Assembly (NCBI RefSeq): GCF_029714405.1
Contig: NZ_CP121650.1
Coordinates: 4,221,001-4,285,000 of the forward strand
Direction of reading: 5' to 3'
Length of the DNA: 64,000 nt
Source of the DNA: Bradyrhizobium sp. CB82
Lineage (GTDB): Bacteria > Pseudomonadota > Alphaproteobacteria > Rhizobiales > Xanthobacteraceae
Shown: piece by piece, positions 16,641 to 34,564 of the stretch
How positions within the stretch are numbered: position 1 is the first letter of the stretch
How the letters are laid out: the number at the start of each line of letters is the position of its first letter
Notes under the pieces: generated by a model
The model's database searches: none
Seen by the model: only the letters and a program-made list of their open reading frames with translations
Told to the model about the DNA's origin: nothing
Program-made: the position numbers and the translations under genes

Positions 16641-16682
16641 ATACCGTCACGCGCGATGCTGCGCCTGACGGTATTTTTCTTT
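16641..16682 (+). terminator. Rho-independent terminator downstream of guaA
   Basis: TACCGTCA and TGACGGTA form a perfect outer stem, with an inner CGCGC/GCGCC pairing around GATGCT, followed by TTTTTCTTT. It ends the guaA transcript 170 bases after its stop codon and marks the border between core and accessory DNA. Confidence 0.85.
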
Positions 16683-16832
16683 GTCTAAGTGTCTGTAAAA
16701 CAAGGAAACCTCCGGCTGTTCGCGGCTCAAAAATGGCCGACGGTATTTGCCCGGAGTGTCAATCGGCTTGCAAATTTGCCCCCTCATCGGCGTCCAATTT
16801 TGACCCCTTCGCGCGGCGGGGTTTACTGGTAG

Positions 16833-18863
<2,031 letters not shown>

Positions 18864-19002
18864 CGCTGGCAATCCTGCGTGATTGTCGCGCAGCGTCAAT
18901 CAAGGCTTGCCAAAACCGCCGCGAGCGTCAATCATCCTCTGACTCGGCCGCCTCGTCTCATCTTGATTGACGCGCCGCTCTCATCCTGATTGTCGCGCTA
19001 TA

Positions 19003-19368
19003 GCATGGGCCGTGATGAATTATCTTGGCGAGGCCGGATATCTGGCACTGGCCCGAAAGGTATTGGAGATCAAACAGCGATACATCGCGGGGATCGAGGC
19101 GATTGGCGGCTTTCATTTTCTCGGAGAGCAGCCGCTCGGGGTGATCGCCTACTCTCACGAGGAGTACGACCTGTTGGACGTCGCAGATCGGATGAGCATG
19201 CGCGGCTGGTACATGAGTCGCGTGCAGTTGCCGGCCGGCCTTCAGCACACCATCACGCCGATCCACGAAGTATCACTTGAGGACTATCTTGCGGACTTGC
19301 GGCGGTGCCTCGTTGGGCCTGATCTTCCGAACAGTGAGCGTGCCGCTCGCGTGGTCACGACTTACTGA
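19003..19368 (+). pseudogene. C-terminal fragment of a PLP decarboxylase (sphingosine-1-phosphate-lyase-like)
   Basis: The frame reads AWAVMNYLGEAGYLALARKV, then LGVIAYSHEEYDLLDVADRM, MSMRGWYMSRVQLPAGLQHT and ends RAARVVTTY. This is the C-terminal small domain of a group II PLP decarboxylase of the DPL1/glutamate-decarboxylase fold. The catalytic lysine part is missing, because the IS21 right end joins it at about 19001. It is a dead remnant of a gene that once crossed this point. Confidence 0.65.
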
Positions 19369-19455
19369 GGACTGAAGCGTTCTCTGTTGCTCGTCAGAAT
19401 ACACTGGATGGAGGGGGACGATGATCAAGCGGGAGTTTCCCGTTGTCTGGACCGG

Positions 19456-19737
19456 TCAAAGTAGCGGTGCCAGCGCCGCAGCCGGCGCTGCGGGAGTTTT
19501 CGTTTTTGTCGACTTTTCACTGTCTTGGCGGGTCATCCGGTTCAAGATCGTGCCCAACTCGCCATAGAGCGTGGCGTTCATCTCGCCGCGCTCGGGACCA
19601 GGTTCCAGAACTATCCGGTCGATCAGATTGCGCAGAGCTTCTGTGGCCTCCGTCCGGTCTTCCGGCCGGTTCAGTGCCGTCCGACCTTCTTGGCATAAAT
19701 CTTCCAAGCGCTCTCGGGTAGCCTTGCTCGCGAACAA
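19456..19737 (-). pseudogene. C-terminal fragment of a large serine recombinase
   Basis: The reverse-strand frame contains RPEDRTEATEALRNLIDRIV, then LEPGPERGEMNATLYGELGT and ILNRMTRQDSEK. This is the typical C-terminal tail of large serine integrases/resolvases found on rhizobial islands. The catalytic resolvase domain and zinc ribbon are absent upstream (19741 onward). It is a further sign that this junction has hosted mobile DNA. Confidence 0.65.
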
Positions 19738-19740
19738 CTA

Positions 19741-20165
19741 AAGCAAGCCGGCCTCGATGAGCCGAGCAAAATCAACCCGCGTTCGATGCGCTCGATTAGC
19801 GCTCCTTCATTGAAACCGTGATTGGTCATTTGTCGCTTTGTCGCCAATGGTCAAACTGGTCCGGTGATCTTCGCTCGACTTGGCCAAGCAGGCGATGGCC
19901 GGTTACCGGACCAATCCGAGAATTGCGGAAGATTACCTTGGTAGGATTTATGCAAGGCCGGGCGGTTGCCGCGCTACTTGGCAATTTTTGTCGAACGATT
20001 TTCGCGGCCGGATCGGACAGACGGAACTTTGAAAAGGAGGCACGCGCTAGAGAGATTCGTCGCCTTTTTCTGGAATCGGGTAAGACGAATGAACGGGCCC
20101 ACCATTTCTTTGAGACTGTCGGCTTCGAGATTTGCTCAGTCGTCGCGCGGATGTCAAGCCGCTAG
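19741..20165 (+). other. gene debris, possibly a decayed GNAT acetyltransferase end
   Basis: This stretch of about 425 bases holds no intact gene. One frame (to 20165) ends SGKTNERAHHFFETVGFEIC, which resembles the C-terminal ERAHxFYExxGF block of GNAT acetyltransferases, but the acetyl-CoA-binding motif is not found upstream. I see nothing else recognisable. Confidence 0.3.
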
Positions 20166-20175
20166 AGAGTCGAAG

Positions 20176-21387
20176 TCAGGCGATCGAAGATTGTGCGATC
20201 GTTGTGAAGCACCCCGCCACCTTCCTGATATTGTCAGGCGTAAGGCCGGCAACACACATCCGTCCTGAACCGACAAGATAGATACCTTCCTCTCGCAACC
20301 GAGCGACCTGTGCCGTGGAATACCCGGTGAAGCTGAACATGCCGTGCTGTTGCAGAAGGAACGCTGTATCCACTGCATTTGAGAGCGTTTGGATCTCTGC
20401 TGCGAGCAGACGCCTCATCGTGAGCATGCGTTCACGCATATGGCGTACCTCATTCGACCATAGCGAGAAAAGATCCGGCTCGCCGAGAACGGTCGTTACC
20501 AGGGCGCTTGCGGTGATCGGTGGCGTTGAGTAGCTGCGCCGCACCGCTTGCTTTAGCTGACCGAGAGCGCGTTCCGCTTCGTCGTTGTCGCGGCAGACGA
20601 CCGTCAAGCCGCCGCAACGTTCCCCATAGAGCGCTAGGTTCTTGGAGAAGGAATTTACGATGAGACAGCCGCCGTCAACGGAGCGTTCGGCGAAGCGCCG
20701 CACGAAACCGGCATCGTCATCGAAACCGGAGCCAAATCCTTGGTAGGCCATGTCGAAGACCACTAGGTGTCGTTTCGCAAGGAGCAGCTTCGTGAGGAGC
20801 GCCTCCTGACGCTGGTCCAGGTCGAGGCCGGTCGGATTGTGGCAAATGGGCTGTATGACGACGATCGAGCCTTCGCTCGCGTGCTCCAGGGTATGGGTCA
20901 TTCCGTCAAAATCAAGAGAGCGGGTCTGCGGGTCCCAGTACGGGTAAGTCGCTGTTCCAAAGCCCGAGCGCTGAAACAGCCCGTGGTGGTTCTCCCAGCT
21001 TGGATCGCTGATGTAGACGCGTCGGTTTGGGCAATGCTTGGCGAGGAAATCTGCTGCCAGACTGATGCCGCCCGTGCCTCCCAGGGTCTGCACGGTTACG
21101 ACACGGCCCTCAACGACAGCAGGATGCCGATCTCCCAAGACCAAGCGACAAACGAGGTCGCGGTAGAGCGGATGTCCTTCCATCGGGAGATAGCCGCGCG
21201 CCTGCTCACCAAAGCGCTGGCTCGCGATCCGCACAGACGGCAGGAGGGGGATTCTGCCTTCCTCATCGACGTAGATGCCAATCCCAAGGTTGACCTTATC
21301 CAACCGCGGGTCGTCCCGATAGAGATCGTTGAGTAACAGGATGGGATCTCCCGCGTAGGGCTCGATGACCCCAAACAAGCTGTTCAT
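20176..21387 (-). CDS. aromatic/aspartate aminotransferase (class I, TyrB/AspC type)
   Basis: This 403-residue fold-type I aminotransferase exchanges amino groups between aromatic or acidic amino acids and 2-oxo acids. It starts like AspC/TyrB (DPILLLNDLYRDDPRLDKVNLGIGIY). It has the Asp that holds the PLP pyridine in DMAYQGFGSG, the PLP Lys in NSFSKNLALYGER, and the C-terminal substrate Arg in LVGSGRMCVAGL. It lies in reverse orientation next to UbiX and shares the divergent control region at 22180-22419 with the plus-strand aromatic cluster. It may make or recycle an aromatic amino acid there. Confidence 0.92.
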   Translation of the reverse strand: MNSLFGVIEPYAGDPILLLNDLYRDDPRLDKVNLGIGIYVDEEGRIPLLPSVRIASQRFGEQARGYLPMEGHPLYRDLVCRLVLGDRHPAVVEGRVVTVQTLGGTGGISLAADFLAKHCPNRRVYISDPSWENHHGLFQRSGFGTATYPYWDPQTRSLDFDGMTHTLEHASEGSIVVIQPICHNPTGLDLDQRQEALLTKLLLAKRHLVVFDMAYQGFGSGFDDDAGFVRRFAERSVDGGCLIVNSFSKNLALYGERCGGLTVVCRDNDEAERALGQLKQAVRRSYSTPPITASALVTTVLGEPDLFSLWSNEVRHMRERMLTMRRLLAAEIQTLSNAVDTAFLLQQHGMFSFTGYSTAQVARLREEGIYLVGSGRMCVAGLTPDNIRKVAGCFTTIAQSSIA

Positions 21388-21567
21388 ATGATCGTTCCGA
21401 ATTCGAGTGCGGAGGGGGTATTAAAGTTGGCAGCTACGACACGCCCCGTTGAAGCGCGCATCGACCGCTTGTTGCCGGGTTGAGAGCCTCGTTTCCGAGA
21501 ATACACACGATGCGAGCCGTTAAAATTTGCAAGACGTGTAGCTTGACGCCGATGTGCCGAGAAATCT

Positions 21568-22179
21568 TTATCTCCGTTCAATTGCGTCTTGCCGGCGAAC
21601 CGAACCGCCTTCGTCATCGGTCCACCTACGGACGACGCCCACATCGATGTCGTAGAGATCGAGGACACGGCCAATGGTATGGTCAACCATATCTTCGAGA
21701 GTCTGCGGTCTGGCATAGAATGCCGGAACCGGCGGATAGATGACCGCACCCATCTCGGACAGTGTCGTCATCGTTCTCAGGTGGCCGGTATGCAATGGCG
21801 TTTCGCGCACCATGAGCACCAAGCGTCGTCTTTCCTTTAAGACCACGTCGGCTGCACGCGTCAGCAGAGACGACGTGACGCCCGTAGCAATTTCCGACAT
21901 CGAACGAATGGAGCAGGGAGCGACGATCATTCCGTTCGTTCTGAATGATCCGCTTGAAATCGCTGCACCAATGTCGTCGGCCTTGTACCACCTGTCGGCC
22001 AATGATCGCACATCGGCAACCTTGACAGGTCCCTCGTGAGCCATGGCTATTTCTGCGGCCTTGGAAATCACGAGATAGGTTTCCACTGGAGCTTGCCGCA
22101 ATACGCTCAGTAGTCGCACGCCATAAGCAATGCCTGAAGCGCCGGAAATCCCAACAACTAGACGGGGTAAATCAACCAT
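21568..22179 (-). CDS. ubiX: UbiX-family flavin prenyltransferase
   Basis: UbiX prenylates FMN with dimethylallyl phosphate to make prFMN, the cofactor of UbiD-type decarboxylases. The 203-residue chain has the N-terminal glycine motif VVGISGASGIAYGVRLL, the APCSIRSMSEIATGVTSSLL stretch, and RRRLVLMVRETPLHTGHLRT, all family hallmarks. The last 20 residues are variable. Its partner UbiD gene is 2.3 kb away on the other strand (24462-25934). The spacer to the aminotransferase gene (21388-21567) holds no gene. Confidence 0.93.
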   Translation of the reverse strand: MVDLPRLVVGISGASGIAYGVRLLSVLRQAPVETYLVISKAAEIAMAHEGPVKVADVRSLADRWYKADDIGAAISSGSFRTNGMIVAPCSIRSMSEIATGVTSSLLTRAADVVLKERRRLVLMVRETPLHTGHLRTMTTLSEMGAVIYPPVPAFYARPQTLEDMVDHTIGRVLDLYDIDVGVVRRWTDDEGGSVRRQDAIERR

Positions 22180-22419
22180 TCAGCAACTCCACAATTTACC
22201 CCCATGCTCGATTGGAGATCACAAGTCAAGCGAATGGCTGCTGTCATTGTAGAAATCGATCGACACATTCAACTGCATTGGAGCGTCACAGCGGCCGCGA
22301 GTTCCATTCGAGTGAATTGTTGATCAACCCGCAGTCGGTCGTGACGAGCTATCGTCATATTTGACCTCTATCATAAGTTGCACTATGACCTCAAGGCTTT
22401 GAGGCGTGGAGCTGCTTGC
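22180..22419. promoter_or_regulatory. divergent control region of the aromatic cluster
   Basis: This spacer of 240 bases separates UbiX (reverse) from the MFS gene (forward) and must carry promoters for both arms. It is clearly AT-richer than the genes. GTGAATTGTTGATCAAC near 22312-22328 contains the 8-base palindrome GTTGATCAAC. No sigma-70 site of high quality could be assigned by eye. Confidence 0.4.
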
Positions 22420-23688
22420 ATGACAACCTCGGACTCGGCCGCTGAAACTCCTCCGACGCTGATGTCTACACGTGCCATCGTCGTTGCCGTTGTCGCCGCG
22501 ACGATAATCTCGTTGAGCATGGGGCTCCGTCAAAGTCTAAGTCTGTTTCTTCCCCCCATGGAGGCCGATCTCGGCGTTTCCGCGTCTGCCTTCGGATTTG
22601 CGATTGCACTCCAAAGCCTGGTGTGGGGCATCAGCCAACCTTTCATCGGAATTCTGGGCGATCGCTTTGGCGCTCGCCCTGTTCTTGTAGGCTGTGCGAT
22701 CATCTATGCCGCTGGGCTCTTGCTTATGGCTACAGCATCCCCGACTGCCGCGCTGGACCTCGGAGCTGGAGTTTTGGTCGGGCTTGGCGTTTCTGGAACC
22801 AGCTTCGGCGTCCTGCTTGGCACCGTATCCCGAATTGCCCCGCCTCAATGGCGAAGCCAGATCGTAGGGCTCGTTTCCGCCGGCGGCTCTCTTGGTACAC
22901 TCGCGCTTGCGCCATTCGGGCAGATTTTGATTTCAGGGCACGGCTGGCGTGCCGCCCTGATTGCCTTTGCAATTGTCGCGCTTCTTACCGGTGTTATTTC
23001 ATTCGCGATCGGACGCGACCGCGATGCTCCGTCGGTATCAGCTGCGCAGCCTGACTTCGGGTCACTTCGAACAACGCTGTCCAGCGCCGCGCATCATCGC
23101 GGATTCATCGTAATGACTGTCGCCTTCTTTGCCTGCGGCTTCCAGCTCCTGTTCATCGCCACCCATTTGCCCCAATTTCTCCAGCTCTGTGGGATCGCTC
23201 CAGCGGTGAGTGCGAGCGCCCTCGGATTGATCGGGCTTGGCAATGCCATCGGCTCCTACATTGGCGGTCTACTCGGTGCTCGTTTTAGTCAGAAGCGCCT
23301 ACTGGCTCTGGTGTATCTACTGCGCACGCTCACGATCGTCGTCTACCTCGCACTACCTATTAGCGATGTGGCGACGTTGGTATTTGGATTCGTTATGGGG
23401 CTGCTCTGGTTCAGCGTCACGCCGTTGGTAAGCGGGCTTATTGGACGCATGTTTGGACTGCAGCACTTCAACACGCTCTTCGGCTTTACGTTCTTGAGTC
23501 ACCAACTGGGCTCGTTTGCTGGCGCGTGGCTGGGCGGGATGAGTTTCGATTTCACTGGCTCTTACACTGTAGCCTGGAGCGCTGTGGTCATCGTCGGCTT
23601 GGGCGCGGCTGTATTGCAATGGCTAGGCGATGACAGTCCGGCGCCCGTCACCGCCATGCCCGCAACACGCGTAGCAGCGTCAGCGTGA
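22420..23688 (+). CDS. MFS transporter (oxalate/formate antiporter or monocarboxylate-like)
   Basis: This is a 422-residue inner-membrane carrier with twelve membrane segments. Visible landmarks are the TM1 stretch LSMGLRQSLSLFLPPMEADL, the loop GDRFGARPVL between TM2 and TM3, and the mirrored C-terminal loop GARFSQKRLLALV. I prefer the ATG at 22420, which has GGAG eight bases upstream, over the TTG at 22378. As the first gene of the plus-strand arm of the aromatic cluster, it may export the product or import a precursor. Confidence 0.88.
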   Translation: MTTSDSAAETPPTLMSTRAIVVAVVAATIISLSMGLRQSLSLFLPPMEADLGVSASAFGFAIALQSLVWGISQPFIGILGDRFGARPVLVGCAIIYAAGLLLMATASPTAALDLGAGVLVGLGVSGTSFGVLLGTVSRIAPPQWRSQIVGLVSAGGSLGTLALAPFGQILISGHGWRAALIAFAIVALLTGVISFAIGRDRDAPSVSAAQPDFGSLRTTLSSAAHHRGFIVMTVAFFACGFQLLFIATHLPQFLQLCGIAPAVSASALGLIGLGNAIGSYIGGLLGARFSQKRLLALVYLLRTLTIVVYLALPISDVATLVFGFVMGLLWFSVTPLVSGLIGRMFGLQHFNTLFGFTFLSHQLGSFAGAWLGGMSFDFTGSYTVAWSAVVIVGLGAAVLQWLGDDSPAPVTAMPATRVAASA

Positions 23689-23849
23689 TTGTTCTTCGAG
23701 CATCGTTGAGAAATGCAACGATACAACTAAAAAGAGTCTTTTTATAATTGACGACTTTTACGATTTTTGATTTGGTGCCCGCGCTCGATGTCGGTATCGC
23801 TGCATTATCGAGCGGTTGGTGGTGTGGCGCGCAAATCTGAGGCGGGGAC

Positions 23850-24490
23850 ATGGACGCTCGGTCGCGAGTTACGATTCTTTGTGGATCGGAGCGCTCGGAC
23901 GGCAATACCGAGCAAATCTCTCGGTATTCAGCGGACTATCTCTCACAGCGTGGGCACGAGGTGGAAGTGTTCTGCCTTGGTCGACTCAACATCGAGCCGT
24001 GCGGGACGTGCGGGGATTGCAATTTTGCGCAGCGTCCCTGTACGATCGACGACGACATGCCGCGCATCATCGAGCGGATGATCCAGTCGGATGCTGTCAT
24101 CTACGCCGCACCGGTCCATGGCTTCGGTTTGGCGCATCCTATGCAGGTCTTTATCGAGCGCGCGGGCGTTTGCTTCCTTCGTTTCGAGCGCCCCCTCGAA
24201 AACAAAATCGGCGAAGTGATCACCATCGGACGGCGTTATAGCCTCGGTAGTGTTCACGATCAGCTTGTGAACAACATCCTCCTTAACCGCATGATCAAAC
24301 CGGGAAGTGGTTACCCCGTACTTCTCGAAGGGGGCGCCCCGGAAAAGTCTTTTCGGACGGGGAAGGCATGTCCGCTCTTCATGCCATGCTGAGCCGGTTG
24401 TCGGATCTGCTCGTTCACCTGCGGCCGGCGTTTCAGGACATGAAGAAAATGGATCTGGGGAATGAACGAGTTGCCGCTCCGGCCGTCTGA
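23850..24490 (+). pseudogene. flavodoxin-fold NAD(P)H-dependent FMN reductase, frameshifted near the C-terminus
   Basis: The frame begins with the FMN-binding pattern TILCGSERSDGNTEQIS and a CGTCGDC cysteine pair, and continues with YAAPVHGFGLAHPMQVFIER. This fits the NADPH-dependent FMN reductase family, which can supply reduced FMN for UbiX. At about 24340 the frame breaks. The expected C-terminal sequence VFSDGEGMSALHAMLSRLSD is encoded in the -1 frame and ends at the TGA 24490. That end overlaps the UbiD start (24462), as expected of an intact ancestral operon. One A missing from the AAAA run would explain it. As read, the product ends at 24392 with 12 foreign residues. Confidence 0.8.
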
Positions 24491-25934
24491 CGCGTCGGGT
24501 GAGCCGCTGACCTACATGTCTGATCTCGCATCGGTGCTTCGCGAATTCGCTCGGCTCGGCGAAACCGTAAGCTATGTTGATCAGGTCCTCTCGCCCGACC
24601 TCGAGATCGCCGGTCATTACGCACAACAGGCGGGTTCTCCCGCCTCTTCGCGCAGCGAGGACGAAGGCATCCTTGTCTATACCGGCACAGCGATACCCGT
24701 CGTCATGGGTCTGTTCGGCGCGCGTCGGAGAAATAACATCTTGTTGTCCGGAGCGCCGACCCTGGACAAGCGGGGTCTCGCCAACCGCCTCAAGCGACAG
24801 ATCGCGCCGATCGTCGTGCAAGATCCGCGTTGCCAACGGCGGCGGATCGAGCCAGTGGCGCTGAGTGCCTTACCCATCTTGCGCTATACTCAACAAGATG
24901 GCGGACCGTATATCACTTCGGGGATCGTTTATGCTCAAAGTCCGACGGGAGGCGCGTCCAACGTGTCGATCCATCGCCTCTGTGTTGTCGACGACCGGCA
25001 TTGCACGATTTGGATGGTGCCGGGACGGCATCTGGAGACCTTTTACAAGGCGGCTTTAGCGCGCGGACAATCGCTCAAGATATCCATCAATATTGGTGGT
25101 GATCCGTTGATCTATCTCGCGTCGTCATTCTCGCCGCCGCACACAGAGCTCTTTACCAACGAACTCCACATTGCGGGCGCCATGCGCGGCCGTCCTGTGC
25201 CTATCGCTAAATGCGCGACAAACGAAGCGTTCTGTTTCGCAAATACCGATATTGTCCTCGAAGCGGAGATCACGGCAGAAGCAGCTCCCGAGGGACACAC
25301 CGGATACTCCATGCCGGAGTTTCTCGGCTATATGGGGGAGAGCAAATCGACGTTGCCGCTCGTTCGAATAAACGCGATCACCACACGCGATCAGCCATTC
25401 TACCAGACGTTTCTGGGGCCAGGACGAGAGCAGTCGGAACTCCTCGCCATCCCCCAAGAGGTCTCGATCCTGGAGGCAGCCGGCGAGGTTCCCGGGGTGA
25501 CCGTACTTGATGTTCACTGTCCGAGCTATGGCGGCGGACTTCTCGTGGCGGTCGTGAGCGTGTGCAAGACCTCCCGGGAAGGCGATGCTGGTGTTCATTT
25601 CCTCGGCAGGAAAATCCTCGATACGCACAAATACGTCAAGAATGTCTATGTCGTAGGCGAAGATATCGACATCTACTCGCCGGAAGATGTTCTATGGGCC
25701 ATGACGACGCGGATGCAGCCCGATCTCGATCTGCGAATTCTGACGGAGCAACCCGGATTTCCGATGGACCCCAGTCAGACCGTCGCTTTCCGCGGCGCCC
25801 GGCTGAGTGGCGCGGCTCCTGAAGCGCCGTTGACAAGCCGCAGCGTAATGGACTGCACATGCCCCTACGCCATGAAGCACGCCATCCGTTCGTCCTTTTC
25901 ATCTTATCCACAATCAGAGGTACGCCATGGATGA
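24462..25934 (+). CDS. UbiD-family prFMN-dependent (de)carboxylase
   Basis: This 490-residue enzyme would remove or add a carboxyl group on an aromatic or unsaturated acid using prenylated FMN. Family landmarks are GARRRNNILLSGAPTLDKRG near residue 85-105, GGPYITSGIVYAQSPTGGAS in the prFMN-binding region, INIGGDPLIYLASSF, the acidic EITAEAAPEGHTGYSMPEF block, and LDVHCPSYGGGLLVAVVSV. It overlaps the reductase remnant by 29 bases and the chorismate mutase by 8 bases, so it is translated as part of an operon. The substrate is unknown. Confidence 0.9.
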   Translation: MNELPLRPSDASGEPLTYMSDLASVLREFARLGETVSYVDQVLSPDLEIAGHYAQQAGSPASSRSEDEGILVYTGTAIPVVMGLFGARRRNNILLSGAPTLDKRGLANRLKRQIAPIVVQDPRCQRRRIEPVALSALPILRYTQQDGGPYITSGIVYAQSPTGGASNVSIHRLCVVDDRHCTIWMVPGRHLETFYKAALARGQSLKISINIGGDPLIYLASSFSPPHTELFTNELHIAGAMRGRPVPIAKCATNEAFCFANTDIVLEAEITAEAAPEGHTGYSMPEFLGYMGESKSTLPLVRINAITTRDQPFYQTFLGPGREQSELLAIPQEVSILEAAGEVPGVTVLDVHCPSYGGGLLVAVVSVCKTSREGDAGVHFLGRKILDTHKYVKNVYVVGEDIDIYSPEDVLWAMTTRMQPDLDLRILTEQPGFPMDPSQTVAFRGARLSGAAPEAPLTSRSVMDCTCPYAMKHAIRSSFSSYPQSEVRHG

Positions 25935-26229
25935 ACCTGTGACCACGCTGCGCCAAGTGCGGGCCGAAATTGACACGATCGATGATGAATTGGTGGCTCT
26001 TCTGGCGCGCCGTCTCCTATTGGCGCAGCAAGCCCGCCAGTTCAAGGAGCCGACCAAGACGAGTATCCAAGCGAGCGATCGCGTTGCGGCGGTGATCGCG
26101 CGTGTTCGCGAGCGTGCGCTAGCGTCAGGCGGTGACCCCGACATCACGCAGCGAATCTATGAACTTATCATTCGTGAGTTCACCGCAGTACAGTTGAAGG
26201 AAGCCGCGCAGCAGGCTGGCGACAAGTAA
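25927..26229 (+). CDS. chorismate mutase (AroQ type)
   Basis: This 100-residue all-helical monofunctional mutase would convert chorismate to prephenate. The N-terminal LRQVRAEIDTIDDELVALLARR and QRIYELIIREFTAVQ segments match AroQ helix 1 and helix 3. It has no signal peptide, so it is cytosolic. It overlaps the UbiD gene by 8 bases. AroQ-fold proteins can also act on aminodeoxychorismate (PapB) or isochorismate, so the substrate needs context. In this cluster it competes with TrpE/TrpG for chorismate. Confidence 0.9.
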   Translation: MDEPVTTLRQVRAEIDTIDDELVALLARRLLLAQQARQFKEPTKTSIQASDRVAAVIARVRERALASGGDPDITQRIYELIIREFTAVQLKEAAQQAGDK

Positions 26230-26255
26230 CCGGCCAAGAGGGCCCAGAGGAACTC

Positions 26256-26996
26256 ATGCGAATTGAGAATATCATTGCTTACGATGCCGGCTTGATGACG
26301 CGCTTCGACGGATTTCGTGCCGGGCTCGTCTTGATCGACGAGTTCGAACTCACTCAGCTTGAATCCGCTGTTCCGAAAATCGTGCTGTCGGCCGAGCAGG
26401 ATGTCGCCGAGATGGCAAGCATCAAGGCGTGGCGCGACGTCTATCGGCAGATGGGCGTCAACCCGACCAAGACGCGCAATGCAGCGGAGGCGTTGATACG
26501 ACGCTTCAAGAAGGATGGCAGCTTGCCGATGATCAATCCCGTCGTGGATGCGTGTAACCACGCGGCCGTCGTTCACGGCATCCCGATTGCCGCTGTCGAC
26601 ATATCGACGATGCCGTTACCGCTCGTGGTAAGGCAGGCGTCGGGGACCGAAGTCTTCTTCGACATATCCGGCAACGAAAGCACGCTGAGCGGCGAGGAGG
26701 TTACGTATCTCGATGACCGTGGCCGAGCACATGCGCGCTATTGGAATCATAAGCAAAGCGGCGCGTCCGCGGTCAGTCGAACGTCAAAGCGCGTTCTTAT
26801 CACGATAGAAGCGATACACGGAGATGCCGGCGAAACTGTGCGTGCCGCGACTGACGACGTCATTCGATTGCTGAAGGCTCATGGGGTGCGCCTGACAGAC
26901 GGCAACGTGCACATCTGGTTATACGATGGAAACTCCGGGTCGTTTGATGTCCTCGCGGGCGCCAGCAAATCAGAAGGTGTCGATCGGCTCCAGTAG
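26256..26996 (+). CDS. free-standing B3/B4 tRNA-editing-type domain protein
   Basis: This 246-residue protein is built on the B3/B4 domain known from the beta subunit of phenylalanyl-tRNA synthetase, where it clears mischarged Tyr-tRNA(Phe). Typical free-standing signatures are IKAWRDVYRQMGVNPTKTRN near residue 50 and LPMINPVVDACNHAAVVHGI near 90, with PIAAVDISTM after it. It is separated from the chorismate mutase by 26 bases. In an operon making or using aromatic amino acids, a trans-editing or analogue-sensing role is possible, but that is inference. Confidence 0.8.
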   Translation: MRIENIIAYDAGLMTRFDGFRAGLVLIDEFELTQLESAVPKIVLSAEQDVAEMASIKAWRDVYRQMGVNPTKTRNAAEALIRRFKKDGSLPMINPVVDACNHAAVVHGIPIAAVDISTMPLPLVVRQASGTEVFFDISGNESTLSGEEVTYLDDRGRAHARYWNHKQSGASAVSRTSKRVLITIEAIHGDAGETVRAATDDVIRLLKAHGVRLTDGNVHIWLYDGNSGSFDVLAGASKSEGVDRLQ

Positions 26997-27115
26997 AGAA
27001 CCGAGTTTGCCGACCAATACCGTCCTTCCATAGACGTTACTGTTAAGCACGGCGGATAAGACGATCATCCCCTTGCAGCGGACCTTCTGAGAGCAACTAT
27101 CGGGGAGAGAAAACT

Positions 27116-27484
27116 GTGACGAACGAAACATCATTGGCCTCTGAGCAGAGTGCGCTCAAGCGATCGCCGGTGCGGATCAACCTCCCGGAAATATCCTGGG
27201 ACAAATGGTCCAAGCCGGGCGCAGATGGCCGCGTCAAGCTAGCGCGAGCGTTCGGCAAACGTGTTCGGATTCTCGAATTGCCTAAAGGATTCGACGAGCA
27301 GAACTGGTGCGACAAGGGGCACCAGGGTTTCGTACTCGAAGGTGAGTTCACGATCAGCTTTGAGACCGGTGACGAGTTCACCTGCAAGCAGAACGACGCA
27401 TTCGTCATTCCCGACAATATCCGGCATCGGTCACGAGGCGCGGCCAGCGGACAGACGGTCGTGTTTGTCGTGGACGAACTATAG
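27116..27484 (+). CDS. single-domain cupin protein
   Basis: This 122-residue protein has one cupin barrel. Motif 1 resembles KGHQGFVLEGEFTISFETGD, and motif 2 lies at DAFVIPDNIRHRSRG with one His. The metal-ligand set is incomplete compared with classical dioxygenases (one His in motif 1, one in motif 2), so a binding or isomerase role is as likely as oxygenation. The start is GTG 27116 with GGGGAGAG upstream. It lies 119 bases after the B3/B4 gene and 45 bases before TrpB2. Its job in the cluster is unknown. Confidence 0.75.
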   Translation: MTNETSLASEQSALKRSPVRINLPEISWDKWSKPGADGRVKLARAFGKRVRILELPKGFDEQNWCDKGHQGFVLEGEFTISFETGDEFTCKQNDAFVIPDNIRHRSRGAASGQTVVFVVDEL

Positions 27485-27529
27485 CAACGCAGAAGTCCTG
27501 CGAAACAAGCTTTCAAGGAGAGGAGTGTG

Positions 27530-28878
27530 ATGGATACTACCGTTAAATACGTGTTGGACGAGCAACATCTCGCAAAAACCTGGTACAACATTGCTGCTGA
27601 TCTTCCGGGTGGGGCATCACCTCTCGTTCACCCTGCAACGCGTGCGCCGATCGGTGCCACCGAGCTTGAGCCGCTGTTCCCCCGAGAGCTCATTCAGCAA
27701 GAGCTGAGCAAGGAACGGCGCATTGAGATTCCGGAGCCGGTTCGCGCTCTCTATCGCCAATGGCGACCGTCGCCGCTCTACCGTGCCCGCCGACTGGAGC
27801 AGGCGCTCGATACACCTGCCAAGATCTATTACAAGTACGAGGGCGTCAGCGCGTCGGGCAGCCACAAGCCCAACACCGCCATTCCCCAGGCCTTTTATGC
27901 GAAGCAGGAAGGCGTGAAGCGTCTCACAACCGAAACGGGCGCGGGACAGTGGGGATCGGCGCTGTCGCTTGCCGGTAATTTCTTCGGGCTCGAAGTCGAA
28001 GTGTTCATGGTTCGGGTAAGCTTCAATCAGAAGCCTTACCGCCGTGCTTTCATGGAGAGCTTCGGCGCGAAGTGCATCGCGAGCCCAAGCGACGTCACTG
28101 AGGCGGGACGTGCGATCCTGAAGGCGGATCCCAACAGCACGGGAAGCCTCGGAATCGCAATCAGCGAAGCCGTCGAGCGAGCTGTCCAGCGCGATGATAC
28201 GAAATACGCGCTCGGAAGCGTTCTTAATCATGTGCTGATGCACCAGACAATCATCGGCCAGGAAGCCATGGCGCAGTTCGATCTTGCGGGCGACTACCCG
28301 GATATCGTGGTCGGATGTACCGGGGGAGGCAGCAACTTTGCCGGCGTTTCCTTCCCATTCCTCGGAGAGAAGCTGAGGGGGGAGCGCGACGTCAAGATTA
28401 TCGCGGTCGAGCCTGTCCCTCACTCACCCGTGGAAAATACGGTTATGATTTCGGCGATACCGCTCGCATGACGCCCCTCCTGAAGATGCACAGCCTGGGT
28501 AGTGCGTTTATTCCACCGGCAACGCACGCGGGCGGCCTCCGCTACCACGGCATGGCGCCGCTGGTGAGTCAGTTGGTCGACAGCGGGCATATCCAGGCCG
28601 TCGCCTACAAGCAGCTTGAGTGCTTCGATGCCGGTCTGACCTTCGCCAAGGCTGAGGGCATCCTGCCGGCACCGGAAGCGACACATGCGATCAAGGGCGC
28701 AATCGAGGCTGCGCTGGATTGCAAGATGCGTGGCGAGAAGAAGACGATCCTGTTCAATCTGTGTGGCCACGGGTATTTCGACATGCAAGCCTACAGCGAC
28801 TACCTCGGAGGGAAGCTGGTCGACGACACGCCTGACGAAGAAAAGATGAGTGAAGCGCTCGCAACGGTCGCGGCATAG
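27530..28878 (+). pseudogene. trpB2: tryptophan synthase beta-like PLP enzyme (TrpB2), split by a frameshift
   Basis: The two parts together make a full-length TrpB2 of about 449 residues, a class that works without the TrpA subunit. The first part has YYKYEGVSASGSHKPNTAIP with the PLP lysine, LTTETGAGQWGSALSLAGNF, and the phosphate-binding GCTGGGSNFAG. At about 28411 the frame changes: after AIIAVEP-like sequence the expected C-P-S-L-T continues in another frame with YGYDFGDTARMTPLLKMHSL, then FIPPATHAGGLRYHGMAPLV. One missing base explains it. The reading is either true decay or a sequencing error. The ATG at 27530 follows AAGGAGAGGAG. Confidence 0.85.
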
Positions 28879-28926
28879 CGGCGTATCTGGGCGAATCCAG
28901 CAACGTTGTTGGAGATGAGTATCACC

Positions 28927-30426
28927 ATGAATTCGATCGCGTTGCCGGGCCGCCCGTCATGGCGTGTGCAGTCGGAGACCTTGACCGGCTGCACACCCCT
29001 GCAATCCTATCTCGCCTTGCGCGAGCGGTATGGCGCGGACGGCGTCTACATCCTCGAATCTCTTGCGGGGCCGGGGCGTGACGTACGGGTGGCCCTTGTC
29101 GGATTCGACAAGGTCGCCGAGATAACCATCCGTGGAAGCTCACTTTTGGTCGAGGGAAGAGACCCATTTGTGGGCATGTTCCGGGCGTGGGCGCACAGCT
29201 GTGTGTTTATTGACTGTGACGCTAGCGGCCTGACGATCAAGCCTGATCGTACATGGGATGTTTTGAAAGCGTTGCGGCAGGAATTCGCGCCACCGGGGAC
29301 GACCGACATCGGATTTCTTTCGTTTTTTTCTTATGATGCCGCTTGGCTGATCGAGAAGCTGCCGCGACATATTCCGGCGGAAGAAACGGAGGTGCCGGAC
29401 ATATCGCTTTCTCTCTTTCGAGGGACACTCACATTCGACATCGTCCAGGGAACGGCAAAGGTCGAGTATCTCGAGAATGAGGCCGATGAGCCATTTTCGA
29501 CGCAAACCCTGCGCGACCAAATCGCCGCCGTTGTCGAGCCGATTGACGTTCCTCAGGCAGTTCCGCCCTCTCGTGTGACAGATTCGATGACGAAGCAAAA
29601 GTTTGAAGAGACGGTGCGCGATTGCCTGGAGCACATTGCAGCTGGTGACATCTATCAGATCCAGCTTGGTCACGAAGTACGCATTCAATCCGCCGCGGAT
29701 CCTTTCGATGTGTATCGGCGCCTCCGCAGCATCAATCCATCGCCCTACATGTATTTTGCTCCGGTATGCGGGACCTTGGTCATCGGTGCCAGTCCAGAGC
29801 TTTTTATTCGTAAGGAGAATAATGAGGCCTCGATGCGTCCCATTGCGGGCACCAAGCGACGCTCGGGCGACGATTCAACCGATGCCAAGATCGCCGATGC
29901 GCTCCGCCAGGACGAGAAGGAGCGTGCCGAGCACGTTATGCTGATCGATTTGTGCCGGAACGATCTTGGACGTGTTTGTGAGCCGGGCACGCTTGTCGTC
30001 GATGAATGCATGGTTGTCGAGCGTTACTCTCACGTCCTGCATCTCGTCTCGAACGTCCGGGCGTTTCTTGCACCTGAGGAAGATGTGTTCAGTTTCATCC
30101 GAGCGACGTTTCCGGCGGGGACGATGACGGGTGCGCCGAAGATCAGGGCCATGGAACTGATCGAGAGTTTCGAGTCGACGCGCCGCAGCTTTTATGCCGG
30201 TGCGGGTGGGCTCATCACCCTTAGTGGTGACGGAGTCCTCGCGCTCTGTATTCGTACCGCACTCTTTCGTCGCGGCGAGTATTTCATTCGGGCGTCTGCC
30301 GGCGTCGTCGCAGACTCGCAACCCGAATCGGAATGGCAGGAAACCCTTAGCAAACTCGCGGGCACGTTTGTTGCCATAACGGGCGCCGACTTCCCGAAGA
30401 ATTATACAGGCGAGCCGGCGCGGTAG
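28927..30426 (+). CDS. trpE: anthranilate synthase component I
   Basis: TrpE converts chorismate and ammonia to anthranilate and pyruvate. The 499-residue chain has the N-terminal regulatory motif with VYILESLAGPG (equivalent of the LLES tryptophan site). The catalytic half has NPSPYMYF, the PIAGTKRR motif, HVMLIDLCRNDLGR, and FPAGTMTGAPKIRAMELI. The Ala in PIAGT points to TrpE, since PabB enzymes have a catalytic Lys there (PIKGT). The start is uncertain: ATG 28915 abuts GGAG, while ATG 28927 is better spaced. No trpD, trpF or trpC gene is nearby. Confidence 0.92.
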   Translation: MNSIALPGRPSWRVQSETLTGCTPLQSYLALRERYGADGVYILESLAGPGRDVRVALVGFDKVAEITIRGSSLLVEGRDPFVGMFRAWAHSCVFIDCDASGLTIKPDRTWDVLKALRQEFAPPGTTDIGFLSFFSYDAAWLIEKLPRHIPAEETEVPDISLSLFRGTLTFDIVQGTAKVEYLENEADEPFSTQTLRDQIAAVVEPIDVPQAVPPSRVTDSMTKQKFEETVRDCLEHIAAGDIYQIQLGHEVRIQSAADPFDVYRRLRSINPSPYMYFAPVCGTLVIGASPELFIRKENNEASMRPIAGTKRRSGDDSTDAKIADALRQDEKERAEHVMLIDLCRNDLGRVCEPGTLVVDECMVVERYSHVLHLVSNVRAFLAPEEDVFSFIRATFPAGTMTGAPKIRAMELIESFESTRRSFYAGAGGLITLSGDGVLALCIRTALFRRGEYFIRASAGVVADSQPESEWQETLSKLAGTFVAITGADFPKNYTGEPAR

Positions 30427-30447
30427 CTCAGCAAAAAGGGGACGGAT

Positions 30448-31062
30448 GTGAAAACCTTGGTCGTGGATGCGTATGACAGCTTCGTTTACATCATTGCGCA
30501 ATATCTCAGTCAGGCTGGCATGAATCCGACGGTTGTCCGTAATGATTATATCTCGATTGCAAAAATCGAGCGGATGAATCCCGATATGATCCTGCTTGGC
30601 CCTGGTCCTGGCCACCCCGCGGACGCGGGATATGTCGATATTATCCATCATTTCAAAGGCCGCATTCCGATCATGGGAGTCTGCCTTGGACATCAAGCGA
30701 TCGGCTTGGCCTTTGGTGCCGAGGTCATCCGCGCCAAACGGCTGATGCATGGAAAGGACAGCCGCATCAACCACGATGGCAGGGGGTGTTTCGCGGGAGC
30801 GCCGCCTGACCTCACGGCGGTTCGATATCATTCCTTGATCATTGATGGCGCTAGGATCGGGAATGAGCTGGAGGTGACTGCCCTGGCGACCGACGATGGT
30901 TATGTTATGGGTGTGCGGCACCGGCACTACAGCATTGAGGGGGTCCAGTTTCATCCGGAGAGCATCGGAACGGAGTTTGGCATCAAATTCTTCGACAGTT
31001 TCCGTCGAACCTATTGCGATCCAGCGTCCATACCAGCGGCCGCTGTTGCCTCGGCGAGGTAG
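30448..31062 (+). CDS. trpG: anthranilate synthase component II (glutamine amidotransferase)
   Basis: This 204-residue class I amidotransferase feeds ammonia to TrpE. The triad is visible: Cys79 in MGVCLGHQAIG, His in GVQFHPESIG, and the following Glu; the oxyanion strand LLGPGPGHPADAG is present. It starts at GTG 30448, 21 bases after TrpE. Cys/His spacing and the FHPES motif are those of TrpG/PabA, which cannot be separated by sequence alone; its neighbour decides for TrpG. It is the last gene of the aromatic operon before the intron remnants. Confidence 0.92.
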   Translation: MKTLVVDAYDSFVYIIAQYLSQAGMNPTVVRNDYISIAKIERMNPDMILLGPGPGHPADAGYVDIIHHFKGRIPIMGVCLGHQAIGLAFGAEVIRAKRLMHGKDSRINHDGRGCFAGAPPDLTAVRYHSLIIDGARIGNELEVTALATDDGYVMGVRHRHYSIEGVQFHPESIGTEFGIKFFDSFRRTYCDPASIPAAAVASAR

Positions 31063-31230
31063 TCAGCCAACGACAAAGGCGATCCTGATTATTTGTCCCT
31101 AAACAGCACCACGATCTATCCTTGAGTCCGATGAACCCACGTGGCGCACCGCCTTACCCGCTCCGGCATTCATGTGTCGCTCTAACCGATCATGAGCGAC
31201 ATTTTTTCGCGTTTGATCTAGCGCATCCCT

Positions 31231-31404
31231 GGCAACAGCACCTGCCTCGGTCGCTTCCGTCTTCAAGTAATGAAGGCGTGGCGGCGAGTCCTACTCCGGC
31301 GAAGCCAACGGCCGAAGCTGTCGTGGGAGCGGTTCAGCGCGATCTTGAAGGTCTTCCCGATACCGATCGGGCATGTACACGACTGGCGTCACCAAATGGC
31401 CTGA
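31231..31404 (+). pseudogene. C-terminal tail of a group II intron reverse transcriptase/maturase
   Basis: The 57-residue frame reads GNSTCLGRFRLQVMKAWRRV and then LLRRSQRPKLSWERFSAILK, and ends DWRHQMA at the TGA 31404. This is the maturase (domain X) tail of a bacterial intron-encoded protein. The reverse transcriptase part is absent upstream. The tail starts at the same protein position (the GN after YYGV) where the downstream copy at 33141 stops being homologous. The spacer 31063-31230 shows nothing else. Confidence 0.7.
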
Positions 31405-31422
31405 TCCAGTTACTCGTCAGAG

Positions 31423-31456
31423 GAGCCGGATGCGGGAAAGCTGCACGTCCGGATCT
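31423..31456 (+). ncRNA. group II intron domain V
   Basis: A 34-base segment starting GAGCCGGATGCGGGAAAG and ending GTCCGGATCT has the length, GAGCC start, GAAA tetraloop, two-base bulge and closing CCGGA/TCCGG stem of domain V, the catalytic heart of group II introns. It lies 18 bases after the maturase tail, the correct position for the 3' end of an intron. Confidence 0.7.
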
Positions 31457-31479
31457 GAGAGGGTTGCGCCTTGCAAGCG

Positions 31480-33176
31480 CGTTGAAGTCTGCCGTCTGCG
31501 ATGACGGCCGCGGCAAAGCCTAGCGAGCAGCCGCGAACCGAGTCTTGCGTGGCGTCCGGTAACGGCCGTTGCGAAGCGTAGACAGGGAGGTTGCAGGCCG
31601 GAATCAAGTGAACGGGAAGATAGCCCCGAAATCGAACGTGATCGGAGTAGCCGACCCTGTCTCTCAAAGGGGAGGGCGGAATCGCAACCCGCGTCATCGC
31701 GAGCGGGCTGAGGTGCTCGCGGGGTTCGTACCGCCAGCATGCAACCAAAGGAAGCAACGTGAACAAGGGAGATCCATCCGGTTCAAGCGCAAGCTTGTAG
31801 GACCTGCCAAGCCGATGAGGTGAGAAGGGTCTGATGACCGGGTGGAAGTCAGACTGACTGATAGTACTCGGAGGTCGGGAGAGCCGACTACATGGGGAAG
31901 CGGTCAGCGGTAGATGAATTGTTCTTGGGCGACATGGGCTCCATTCAACGGGAGTCACGGCCTTCTATTCTAAGAGAAGATCAGCTGACCATGGAAACGA
32001 AACTTGAACAAATAGCAGTGAAAGCTCGGCGCGAGCCAAATCTTCGCTTCACCTCGTTGGCCCATCACATCACGCGCGACCGAGTGCAAAAGAATCTATT
32101 ACAGATTCCGAAGCGCTCCGCCGCCGGGGTGGACGGACAGACGGTGGAGGCGGCGAGGGAGAGCTTCGACGGATGGATCGAGCCGATGCTCCAATCCATC
32201 CACCGACAGGGATATCGGGCGCCGAACATTCGGCGTGTCTATATCCCCAAGCCCGGTAAGACGGAGAAGCGCCCCCTCGGGGTTCCAACTGTCGCCGACC
32301 GGGCCCTCCAGCGCAGCACGGCTGAGGTGTTGTCCGCCATCTACGAGCAGGACTTCTTGCCCAGCTCGTTCGGCGGCAGGCCGAAGCTCAGCGCCCATCA
32401 CGCCTTGGCGACCCTCAATGAGGTCATCGCCGGCGGCATGATCAGCTGGGTGTTGGAGGCGGATTTGAAGAACTTCTTCGGGAGTCTCGATCATGATTGG
32501 GTCCTCCGGTTTGTCGAACATCGAGTCGGTGATCCGCGCCTGATCAGCTTGATCCGGCGCTGGTTGAAAGCGGGCATCTTGGAAGACGGAGCGGTGCATC
32601 CGAGCGAACAAGGGACGCCACAAGGCGGATCGATCAGTGTGCTTTTGAGCAACCTCTACCTTCATTACGTTCTCGACCTCGTTCGAACGCGTGGTGAAGG
32701 GCCGGTTGCGGGGCGAAGCCCGACTGGTGCGCTATATCGACGACTTTGTGATCTGCTTCCAATATCGATCGGACGCCATCCGCGTACAGGAGGCCTTGCG
32801 TCTTCGGTTGGGGAAGTTCGGCCTCACTCTAGAGCCGACCAAGACCAAGTTGGTCGAGTTTGGTCGGTTCGCGCAAAGACACGCGGGCAAACGCGGCAGA
32901 GACCGCCCGGAAACAATCTACTTTCTGGGTCTAACGCTCTATTGCACGCGAAACCAAAGAGGCAACTTCAAGGTTGGGATGCGTACCGAGAAATCTCGGC
33001 TAAGGCGCAGCCTTATGTCTCTGCAGGAGCTGATGCGGCGAATACGGCATTACAAGATCAGTGACCAGGCCGATGAAATCAACGTCGTCCTGCGCGGCCA
33101 CTATGGCTATTACGGCGTCGCCGGAAATCTCCGATTGCTGGGGTACAATTCTCTGCTTTTTTCAAACACGCGTTGA
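31480..33176 (+). mobile_element. 5' portion of a group II intron with broken intron-encoded protein
   Basis: From about 31480 to 31891 the sequence has the GC-rich, purine-run texture of intron domains I-IV. It ends with GGAGGTCGGGAGAGCCGACT and ACATGGGGAAGCGG just before the protein start, a typical upstream context of bacterial intron proteins. The reverse transcriptase frame follows. No domain V is found after it. The exact 5' boundary cannot be fixed by eye, and no intact 3' boundary exists on this side. Confidence 0.7.
31892..33176 (+). pseudogene. ltrA: group II intron reverse transcriptase, frameshifted and truncated
   Basis: The first part has RT0-RT5 blocks: RSAAGVDGQTVEAARESFDG, RRVYIPKPGKTEKRPLGVPT, VLEADLKNFFGSLDHDWVLR and GTPQGGSISVLLSNLYLHYV. 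Near 32681 the frame breaks (about two bases missing after LHYVLDL). The catalytic YIDDFVICF block and the thumb continue in another frame, ending LRGHYGYYGVAGN before unrelated residues and a stop at 33176. The maturase tail is missing here but a matching tail sits upstream at 31231-31404. It is not functional as read. Confidence 0.85.
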
Positions 33177-33215
33177 TATCGTTGAATCATCAAGCAGGTT
33201 TTGATTCCGCCATTC

Positions 33216-33243
33216 GGAGGTTCGATCCCTCCCGCCCCAGCCA
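33216..33243 (+). other. 3' end of a tRNA or tmRNA gene (attachment-site remnant)
   Basis: GGAGG-TTCGATC-CCTCC forms a perfect T arm with a 7-base loop. It is followed by a 7-base acceptor strand CGCCCCA, a discriminator G and an encoded CCA. The geometry is exact, but the 5' parts are absent; the upstream sequence belongs to the broken intron. Such 3' ends are the usual target and product of island or phage integration. Whether it comes from a tRNA or from ssrA cannot be decided here. Confidence 0.6.
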
Positions 33244-33401
33244 TTTGATTTTACAGGAGAAATTCTCCTTCTTGGTGGCGTCATTTGGAAATGGCGGAGT
33301 CCGCTGCCCATTGAAGAAGAGGCGGCAATTTCGTGGGAGCATCGGGAGAGCGATTTCTTGGCTAATGCGCCACTATCTCACCAAGACGCCGGGCGAGGAG
33401 G

Positions 33402-33626
33402 CCTAGTCTTCGGCCGGAGATCTTTTCCGATGCGATGAATCCCGCAGCGTTCGTAGGCCGCCGCAAACTGCTGGGCGGTCCGGCTCACGAGGCGATCAGT
33501 CGCGAGGTGAAGACGGCGCGTGGCAAGGTCGATGCCGACGCACGGCTGTTAGACGGTTTGGAGGAACAGGTGGAGCGCGCTCATGCGGCGCTGGAGCAGG
33601 CAATATCCGTCTTCGCCGCTGGTTGA
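33402..33626 (+). pseudogene. C-terminal fragment of an argininosuccinate-lyase-like protein
   Basis: The frame reads LRPEIFSDAMNPAAFVGRRK and then LLGGPAHEAISREVKTARGK, and ends QAISVFAAG. The xGGPAxExx block followed by a long helix matches the C-terminal end of ArgH-type lyases of the fumarase superfamily. The catalytic domain is missing. The stop lies 24 bases before the LysR gene on the other strand. The stretch from 33244 to 33401 holds nothing I recognise. Confidence 0.4.
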
Positions 33627-33649
33627 AGATGGATCAGCCTTGCGAAATA

Positions 33650-34534: not shown

Positions 34535-34564
34535 ATAAATCCAGATTATACTCTCGGCCAAAAT

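What the first reader, a model, noticed from the sequence alone, without database searches (positions are those of the whole stretch)
20176..31062. Unrecognised chorismate/aromatic gene cluster combining UbiX/UbiD, chorismate mutase, TrpB2, TrpE/TrpG and an editing domain
Eleven genes in a divergent layout link a chorismate-using branch (TrpE/TrpG, chorismate mutase), a serine-coupling enzyme (TrpB2), an aromatic aminotransferase and a prFMN decarboxylase pair (UbiX/UbiD). They also include a flavin reductase, a cupin, a B3/B4 protein and an MFS carrier. Overlapping genes show co-translation. None of trpD, trpF, trpC or trpA is present, so this is not ordinary tryptophan synthesis. I know of no described pathway with this set. 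A small aromatic or indolic metabolite made and exported by the cell is the simplest reading.
Basis: partly seen in the sequence, partly recalled or inferred. Interest (0 to 1): 0.82.

Follow-up and report, generated by a model that had tools for sequence, protein, structure and literature searches.

The report
Chorismate-to-amino-acid gene cluster, decayed copy
This stretch holds a partly broken copy of a rare but conserved bacterial gene set that probably turns chorismate into an unusual aromatic amino acid, exports it, and protects the maker with an enzyme that cleans wrongly loaded transfer RNA.

Summary
A real, conserved cluster in a damaged copy. A six-gene core (TrpE- and TrpG-like proteins, iron-sulfur FMN protein, small cupin, UbiD, PchB-like AroQ protein) recurs in nine other loci: 5 of 14 found by UbiD and 4 of 4 fetched by the cupin, from Paenibacillaceae, Ruminiclostridium, Herbaspirillum and an actinomycete MAG. 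The FMN protein is 47-49% identical to SgcG and TrpE 45-46% to SgcD, the C-1027 enzymes that make ADIC and oxidise it to enolpyruvoyl-anthranilate. Six of the nine also have a TrpB (TrpB1 or TrpB2), a B3/4 protein and an amino-acid exporter; the other three showed none. The nearest solved B3/4 relative is the canavanyl-tRNA deacylase CtdA. Best reading: chorismate -> ADIC -> enolpyruvoyl-anthranilate -> decarboxylated aminophenol-type ring -> TrpB + serine -> exported non-protein amino acid, with B3/4 for self-protection. Steps one and two rest on homology; the rest is inferred. In the window TrpB2 is split between frames and the SgcG homologue seems truncated. Five searches of the held papers found no such set.

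The parts
20176..21387 (-). aromatic-amino-acid aminotransferase; no BLAST hit in the nine other core loci, accessory
   Evidence: NCBIfam PRK09257 455.6 bits, cut-off 377
21568..22179 (-). UbiX flavin prenyltransferase (makes prFMN for UbiD); also in L017 and L063
   Evidence: TIGR00421 241.4 bits, cut-off 108.9
22378..23688 (+). MFS transporter, probable exporter
   Evidence: PF07690 E 1.5e-42; under the cut-off of every NCBIfam model listed
23850..24392 (+). SgcG-type [Fe-S]/FMN ADIC dehydrogenase homologue, C-terminus apparently lost by a frame change
   Evidence: 47-49% id to annotated SgcG over 87-89% of the query; four Cys kept; frame change weakly supported
24462..25934 (+). UbiD-family decarboxylase, nearest solved kin 3,4-dihydroxybenzoate (protocatechuate) decarboxylases
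   Evidence: PF01977 and PF20696; 5ny5 profile E 2.5e-119
25927..26229 (+). AroQ-fold protein, nearest solved kin PchB (isochorismate-pyruvate lyase)
   Evidence: PF01817; 3hgw profile E 1.9e-15; R12 R29 K40 R52 V53 Q89 invariant in 6 of 6
26256..26996 (+). standalone B3/4 protein, probable aminoacyl-tRNA deacylase
   Evidence: PF03483 E 2.3e-20; CtdA 9f7e E 4.3e-16
27116..27484 (+). small cupin, the best marker of the core
   Evidence: C65 and H69 invariant, H104 nearly so, in 73 sequences; model mean pLDDT 92
27527..28471 (+). TrpB2, N-terminal piece (homology to about 28414)
   Evidence: 64% id to L018 TrpB2, frame 2
28315..28878 (+). TrpB2, C-terminal piece in another frame (homology from about 28411)
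   Evidence: 58% id to L018 TrpB2, frame 1
28906..30426 (+). SgcD-like, probable ADIC synthase (TrpE family, PIAGT motif)
   Evidence: 45-46% id to SgcD; clade with SgcD 99/99
30448..31062 (+). glutamine amidotransferase subunit (TrpG family)
   Evidence: TIGR00566 205.8 bits, cut-off 121.05

Best explanation
A decaying copy of a rare, horizontally scattered biosynthetic cluster. Proposed route: (1) TrpE/TrpG convert chorismate and glutamine to ADIC (2-amino-2-deoxyisochorismate); (2) the SgcG-type flavoprotein dehydrogenates ADIC to 3-enolpyruvoyl-anthranilate (OPA); (3) the cupin and/or the PchB-like protein remove the enolpyruvyl group, giving 3-hydroxyanthranilate; (4) UbiD with prFMN decarboxylates it to 2-aminophenol or a close analogue; (5) TrpB couples this ring to serine-derived aminoacrylate, giving a non-protein aromatic amino acid; (6) a transporter (MFS here, LysE or AzlCD elsewhere) exports it; (7) the B3/4 protein deacylates tRNA charged with it, protecting the producer. 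Shown: family identities, conservation and linkage. Inferred from close homology: steps 1-2. Inferred: steps 4-7. Step 3 is the weakest: which protein acts, and whether pyruvate is lost or migrates, is unknown.
For: SgcG homology at 47-49%. TrpE in one clade with SgcD, 99/99; grouping with E. coli TrpE rejected, p-AU 0.0006. SgcD/SgcG chemistry from PMC10098953 passages. Six-gene core in nine other loci: 5 of the 14 found by UbiD and 4 of 4 fetched by the cupin. B3/4 + TrpB + AzlC or LysE together in 6 of these 9, none of them seen in 3 of 9 (exporter families). TrpB from two subfamilies. Five of five Paenibacillaceae cluster TrpBs keep K87, E109, D305 and S377 but lack N171 and R175, which E. 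coli, own-genome, ancestral and P. furiosus TrpB keep. 2-Aminophenol is a known TrpB nucleophile that slowly gives a new amino acid (PMC9512447 passages). B3/4 nearest to CtdA, a standalone deacylase for a non-protein amino acid. UbiD nearest to protocatechuate decarboxylases.
Against: No product or enzyme activity is known. Loss of pyruvate by the PchB mechanism needs a hydrogen that OPA lacks (recalled chemistry), so the AroQ protein has no clean role here. The cupin's fold neighbours do not single out a function. The first Cys of the SgcG-type motif is Ser in L024 and in L060-L062, so an Fe-S cluster is doubtful there; in L018 homology starts only about 35 codons into the FMN ORF. The window's own TrpB2 and probably its SgcG homologue are broken. 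Three of nine clusters lack TrpB and B3/4, and their TrpE parts fall outside the SgcD clade. The five Paenibacillaceae loci are one lineage. The TrpE tree has long branches and a single anthranilate-synthase reference. The aminotransferase here would fit an arylpyruvate product instead.
Confidence: 0.45

Rival explanations
1. Claisen route: the AroQ-fold protein rearranges ADIC (or OPA), so the enolpyruvyl group becomes a pyruvyl side chain on carbon; the flavoprotein aromatises, UbiD removes the ring carboxylate, and transamination gives an amino-phenylalanine (from ADIC, 4-aminophenylalanine). TrpB would then have another or an added role.
For: AroQ-fold gene in all ten copies (and the window); an aromatic aminotransferase sits beside UbiX in the window; Ruminiclostridium hungatei has a ketopantoate-reductase-family gene beside the core, as a keto acid might need. 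A Phe analogue would suit a PheRS-derived B3/4 editor.
Against: No BLAST hit to the window aminotransferase in the nine other core loci, only MocR-type regulators in the two tested. TrpB, found in two subfamilies, would be superfluous. V53 and the nearest kin point to PchB rather than to a strong mutase (role of the residue recalled).
Confidence: 0.22
2. The core makes an ADIC/OPA-derived building block (benzoxazolinate-like or aminophenol) for another natural product; TrpB and B3/4 are passengers or belong to tryptophan economy.
For: SgcD/SgcG homology; L016, L017 and L063 have the core with no TrpB or B3/4 in the stretch seen; an AMP-binding ligase lies near the L017 core.
Against: No AMP-binding or NRPS domain among the ten window proteins. 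TrpB, B3/4 and an amino-acid exporter occur together in Herbaspirillum and Paenibacillaceae, and TrpB and B3/4 in the window.
Confidence: 0.15
3. A catabolic or detoxification operon for aromatic acids that uses UbiD/UbiX, with chorismate genes alongside by chance.
For: UbiD nearest to protocatechuate decarboxylases.
Against: TrpE/TrpG in all ten copies and a DAHP synthase in the L016 cluster point to synthesis; no ring-cleavage family among the Pfam hits of the ten window proteins.
Confidence: 0.05

Closest known systems
SgcD/SgcG part of the C-1027 cluster and the benzoxazolinate cassette (xsb, pbz, xvb)
   Same: TrpE-family ADIC synthase with TrpG-type subunit and the [Fe-S]/FMN ADIC dehydrogenase: 45-46% and 47-49% identity
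   Different: No acyl-AMP ligase among the window cluster proteins; instead UbiD, cupin, PchB-like protein, TrpB and B3/4
PchB isochorismate-pyruvate lyase
   Same: AroQ fold, nearest solved kin, Arg/Lys/Gln set kept
   Different: 61 bits against the 126-bit NCBIfam isochorismate lyase cut-off; the chorismate enzyme beside it is of the amino-transferring, SgcD kind
TrpB2 and TrpB1 tryptophan synthase beta chains
   Same: Whole-length homology of the L018 and L024 proteins; PLP lysine and Glu109 kept (roles recalled)
   Different: No trpA hit in the window cluster; Paenibacillaceae copies lack N171 and R175
CtdA canavanyl-tRNA deacylase
   Same: Standalone B3/4 protein beside genes for a non-protein amino acid
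   Different: 62-bit similarity only; here beside what look like synthesis, not degradation, genes; its tRNA is unknown
Protocatechuate (AroY-type, name recalled) UbiD decarboxylases
   Same: Best PDB profile matches (5ny5, 5o3n, 5o3m)
   Different: Window UbiD is 39-47% identical to those of the five core loci; substrate unknown

Membership tests
Benzoxazolinate cassette (SgcD, SgcG, acyl-AMP ligase) | ADIC synthase of the SgcD kind | tested here: met
   45-46% id, clade 99/99; by sequence only, activity not tested
Benzoxazolinate cassette (SgcD, SgcG, acyl-AMP ligase) | FMN/[Fe-S] ADIC dehydrogenase of the SgcG kind | tested here: met
   47-49% id to SgcG; C51 C54 C57 C64 invariant in the 7 aligned, but C51 is Ser in L024 and L060-L062; window copy probably truncated
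Benzoxazolinate cassette (SgcD, SgcG, acyl-AMP ligase) | acyl-AMP ligase that cyclises OPA | tested here: not met
   No AMP-binding hit among the ten window proteins
Tryptophan operon | trpD, trpC, trpF, trpA with trpE/G/B | tested here: not met
   Not among the hits of the ten cluster proteins, apart from fused TrpG-TrpD models matched over the TrpG half
Isochorismate-pyruvate lyase (PchB) | score over the curated isochorismate lyase cut-off | tested here: not met
   61 bits against 126
Isochorismate-pyruvate lyase (PchB) | PchB-type active-site residues | tested here: met
   R12, R29, K40, R52, V53 and Q89 invariant in 6 of 6; their role in PchB is recalled
UbiD decarboxylase | UbiD Rift and C-terminal domains | tested here: met
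   PF01977, PF20696 over their cut-offs; TIGR00148 221.7 bits is under its 244.85 cut-off
Tryptophan synthase beta (TrpB2) | one intact reading frame in the window | tested here: not met
   Split over two frames near 28411-28414
Standalone B3/4 aminoacyl-tRNA deacylase | B3_4 domain without a PheRS | tested here: met
   PF03483 only; CtdA E 4.3e-16
Standalone B3/4 aminoacyl-tRNA deacylase | deacylation of a mischarged tRNA | not testable with these tools
   needs biochemistry

The most novel reading that the evidence does not exclude
A previously undescribed pathway in which chorismate is turned through ADIC and OPA into a decarboxylated aminophenol that a TrpA-free TrpB joins to serine, making a toxic Phe/Tyr/Trp look-alike that is exported, with a dedicated B3/4 tRNA deacylase in the same operon as self-immunity. 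TrpB1 and TrpB2 would have been recruited independently to the same non-tryptophan reaction.
Probability: 0.38. Interest if true: 0.82.

Novelty: new variant of a known kind. Interest (0 to 1): 0.62.

Why it matters
It ties the ADIC/OPA branch of chorismate metabolism, known to me from enediyne and benzoxazolinate pathways, to amino-acid making by TrpB and to tRNA quality control as self-protection. It names carriers (Paenibacillus sinensis, P. zanthoxyli, Herbaspirillum sp. ASV7, Ruminiclostridium hungatei) in which the product can be sought, and gives a sequence marker (the cupin) for finding more. If true, it would also show naturally evolved TrpB enzymes acting on non-indole rings.

Tried and rejected
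Ordinary tryptophan synthesis: no trpA, trpC or trpF hit in the cluster; window TrpE with E. coli TrpE as one clade is rejected (p-AU 0.0006); the genome has three other chorismate-binding genes and another TrpB. Aminodeoxychorismate synthase: the motif is PIAGT, not PIKGT as in the own-genome protein at 7.68 Mb (meaning of the motif recalled), and the tree separates them.

Indole by a Reissert-type closure: on paper the amine of ADIC ends para, not ortho, to a migrated side chain, so I dropped it (reasoning, no call).

Cupin function from fold: hits to TM1459, KdgF, BacB, RemF and DddK do not separate, so no function was taken. KdgF, which acts on an enol ether (recalled), is a hint only.

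Island ends: the repeat scan of 16200-34700 gave only short or imperfect pairs. Plasmids: no match for the cluster DNA (megablast) or the cupin (tblastn, E 1e-8). T-box search in L019 4000-7300: none up to E 0.5.

First TrpE tree held a row of wrong frame and long branches; I dropped own_6.93, own_8.11 and L029 and rebuilt; L061 was in neither tree. Nine of the 14 loci showed no core; L021, L022 and L025 have the UbiD match near an end of the DNA held, so absence there is unsure; four of the nine (L020, L023, L028, L029) had no cupin match in their whole genomes. L027 and L029 carry UbiX and a TrpB-like ORF near UbiD, and L029 also TrpE/TrpG-like ORFs, but no cupin, FMN-protein or AroQ hit; I did not follow them. 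The empty Pseudonocardiaceae-type sample has no positive genome, so it shows little.

Literature: the paper searches returned nothing; two searches returned one off-topic listing each. The library is open-licence PMC only.
Full report
What is there. The window lies in a 10.14 Mb, 2-contig genome. TrpB2 has no single ORF: a whole homologue (L018) matches it in frame 2 up to 28414 and in frame 1 from 28411. The FMN protein ends about 40 residues early compared with its relatives; the rest matches weakly in another frame (E 0.007 with L019, 0.30 with L018). Long ORFs of housekeeping type elsewhere in the window look intact by eye, while the IS21-like istA and the group II intron reverse transcriptase beside the cluster look broken by eye, so decay seems likelier than sequencing error; no reads were available. 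The segment follows a guaA-like ORF (14741-16474, named by eye) and is bounded by an IS21-type remnant and a group II intron (Rfam RF02005).

A conserved unit. A UbiD profile scan of genome contigs gave 14 loci; 5 of 14 hold the core. A cupin profile search in the family of Paenibacillus sinensis and in that of Ruminiclostridium hungatei gave 4 more genomes, all 4 fetched as L060-L063, all 4 with the core. So the nine were found through one or two of the core genes; the other four core genes were not selected for. All nine have FMN protein, TrpE, TrpG, cupin, UbiD and AroQ protein close together. B3/4, TrpB and an AzlC or LysE exporter are together in 6 of 9 (L018, L019, L024, L060-L062) and none was hit in 3 of 9 (L016, L017, L063). 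Five of the six are Paenibacillaceae, so with the window there are three independent lineages. In the protein database, 10 of the 40 UbiD rows I compared share an exact contig length with a cupin or B3/4 row, own genome included; one such pair bears the same Vibrio strain name.

Rarity. Cupin matches: in 398 Pseudomonadota, 56 at E <= 0.001 but only the own genome in the full-score range (189.8 bits, next best 54.7). At E <= 1e-20: 1 of 265 in the own genus (own), 1 of 392 in the family of Herbaspirillum (the centre), 4 of 295 in the family of P. sinensis (centre included), 2 of 11 (centre included), 0 of 249 in the family of L028, without a positive control, 1 of 314 Actinomycetota (the MAG already known; profile A5). 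The protein search lists full-score relatives in Burkholderia, Streptomyces, Vibrio and others, so these samples miss carriers. Scattered presence over phyla suggests horizontal spread (inference).

First steps. tblastn of the FMN protein against plasmids found annotated sgcG at 47-49% identity over 87-89% of the query; a P. zanthoxyli copy gives 46-47% over 93-94%. Four cysteines are invariant in the 7 proteins, but the first is Ser in L024 and in L060-L062, and in L018 homology begins only about 35 codons into the ORF. TrpE is 45-46% identical to SgcD, and eight rows (window, two SgcD types, Herbaspirillum, four Paenibacillaceae) form a clade at 99/99. The fused TrpGE proteins of L016, L017 and L063 lie outside that clade, as its neighbours (88/87), so ADIC synthesis is less secure for them. 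The tree warns of long branches and has one anthranilate synthase (E. coli) and two PabB-type rows for comparison. PMC10098953 (passages) says that SgcD makes ADIC without pyruvate cleavage and that SgcG oxidises ADIC to 3-O-enolpyruvoylanthranilic acid, with an acyl-AMP ligase as third gene; that third gene is missing from the window cluster.

Middle steps. UbiD is nearest to 3,4-dihydroxybenzoate (protocatechuate) decarboxylases. The AroQ protein is nearest to PchB and keeps R12, R29, K40, R52 and Q89 with V53 in 6 of 6; it is well under the NCBIfam isochorismate-lyase cut-off. The cupin is highly conserved (E54, C65 and H69 invariant and H104 nearly so in 73 sequences), is modelled as a single cupin barrel and matches many cupins alike. 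Which of the two acts on the enolpyruvyl group is open. If pyruvate is lost, 3-hydroxyanthranilate and, after UbiD, 2-aminophenol follow; if it migrates, an arylpyruvate follows (reasoning).

TrpB. The L018 copy is a TrpB2 (best PDB 6hul) and the window pieces are 64% and 58% identical to it; the L024 copy is a TrpB1, and L019 and L060-L062 are 81-83% identical to it. The five Paenibacillaceae copies keep K87, E109, D305 and S377 but have D at 171 and N, A or M at 175, where E. coli and own-genome TrpB have N and R, as do the ancestral and P. furiosus TrpB. I recall that position 175 contacts TrpA. PMC9512447 (passages) reports that 2-aminophenol reacts with the TrpB aminoacrylate and slowly yields a new amino acid. 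That makes 2-aminophenol a natural candidate, not a proof.

Self-protection. The B3/4 protein's best solved relative is CtdA (E 4.3e-16), then an unnamed B3/4 protein (9mkl). PMC10018355 (abstract and passages) shows CtdA to be a standalone deacylase that keeps canavanine out of proteins. Joint presence of B3/4, TrpB and amino-acid exporter families (AzlC, AzlD in L019, LysE in L018; Pfam) fits an exported amino acid that PheRS or another synthetase may charge. MocR-type regulators flank the Herbaspirillum and P. zanthoxyli clusters.

Verdict. A real, conserved cluster, seen here in a damaged copy and not found described in the papers searched. The first two steps rest on close homology; the product is a proposal.

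Noticed in passing
L017 14476-14696 (+) and L063 4932-5153 (-): T-box leaders before a second fused trpGE gene followed by an AMP-binding ligase (Pfam for L017); the specifier reads UGG (Trp) by eye. The L017 match is 0.5 bit under the gathering score.
   Followed up: partly
window 16917-18863 and 31499-33176: IS21-type istA/istB remnant (by eye) and a group II intron (RF02005) whose reverse transcriptase lies in two frames (by eye) flank the cluster, next to a guaA-like gene; a possible insertion site.
   Followed up: partly
window 18227-18245 and 31171-31189: 19-nt inverted pair, 89% complementary, on both sides of the cluster.
   Followed up: no
window 18967-19368 (+) and 19456-19737 (-): Short pieces that look like a PLP-dependent decarboxylase and a serine recombinase, by eye only.
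   Followed up: no
L061 12165-13532: A transposase-like ORF sits between trpG and the AroQ gene of an otherwise complete cluster (named by eye).
   Followed up: no
L027 and L029: UbiX and a TrpB-like ORF lie near a UbiD (33-34% id to the window's) on the opposite strand; L029 also has TrpE/TrpG-like ORFs, but neither has a hit to the cupin, FMN protein or AroQ protein.
   Followed up: no
plasmid records H17-H30: SgcG-like proteins (35.5%) on Pseudomonas syringae-group plasmids, one annotated 2-amino-4-deoxychorismate dehydrogenase; context not fetched.
   Followed up: no
cupin list: The cupin family also occurs in Streptomyces, Micromonospora, Burkholderia, Achromobacter, Photobacterium and others, whose gene neighbours I did not see.
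   Followed up: no
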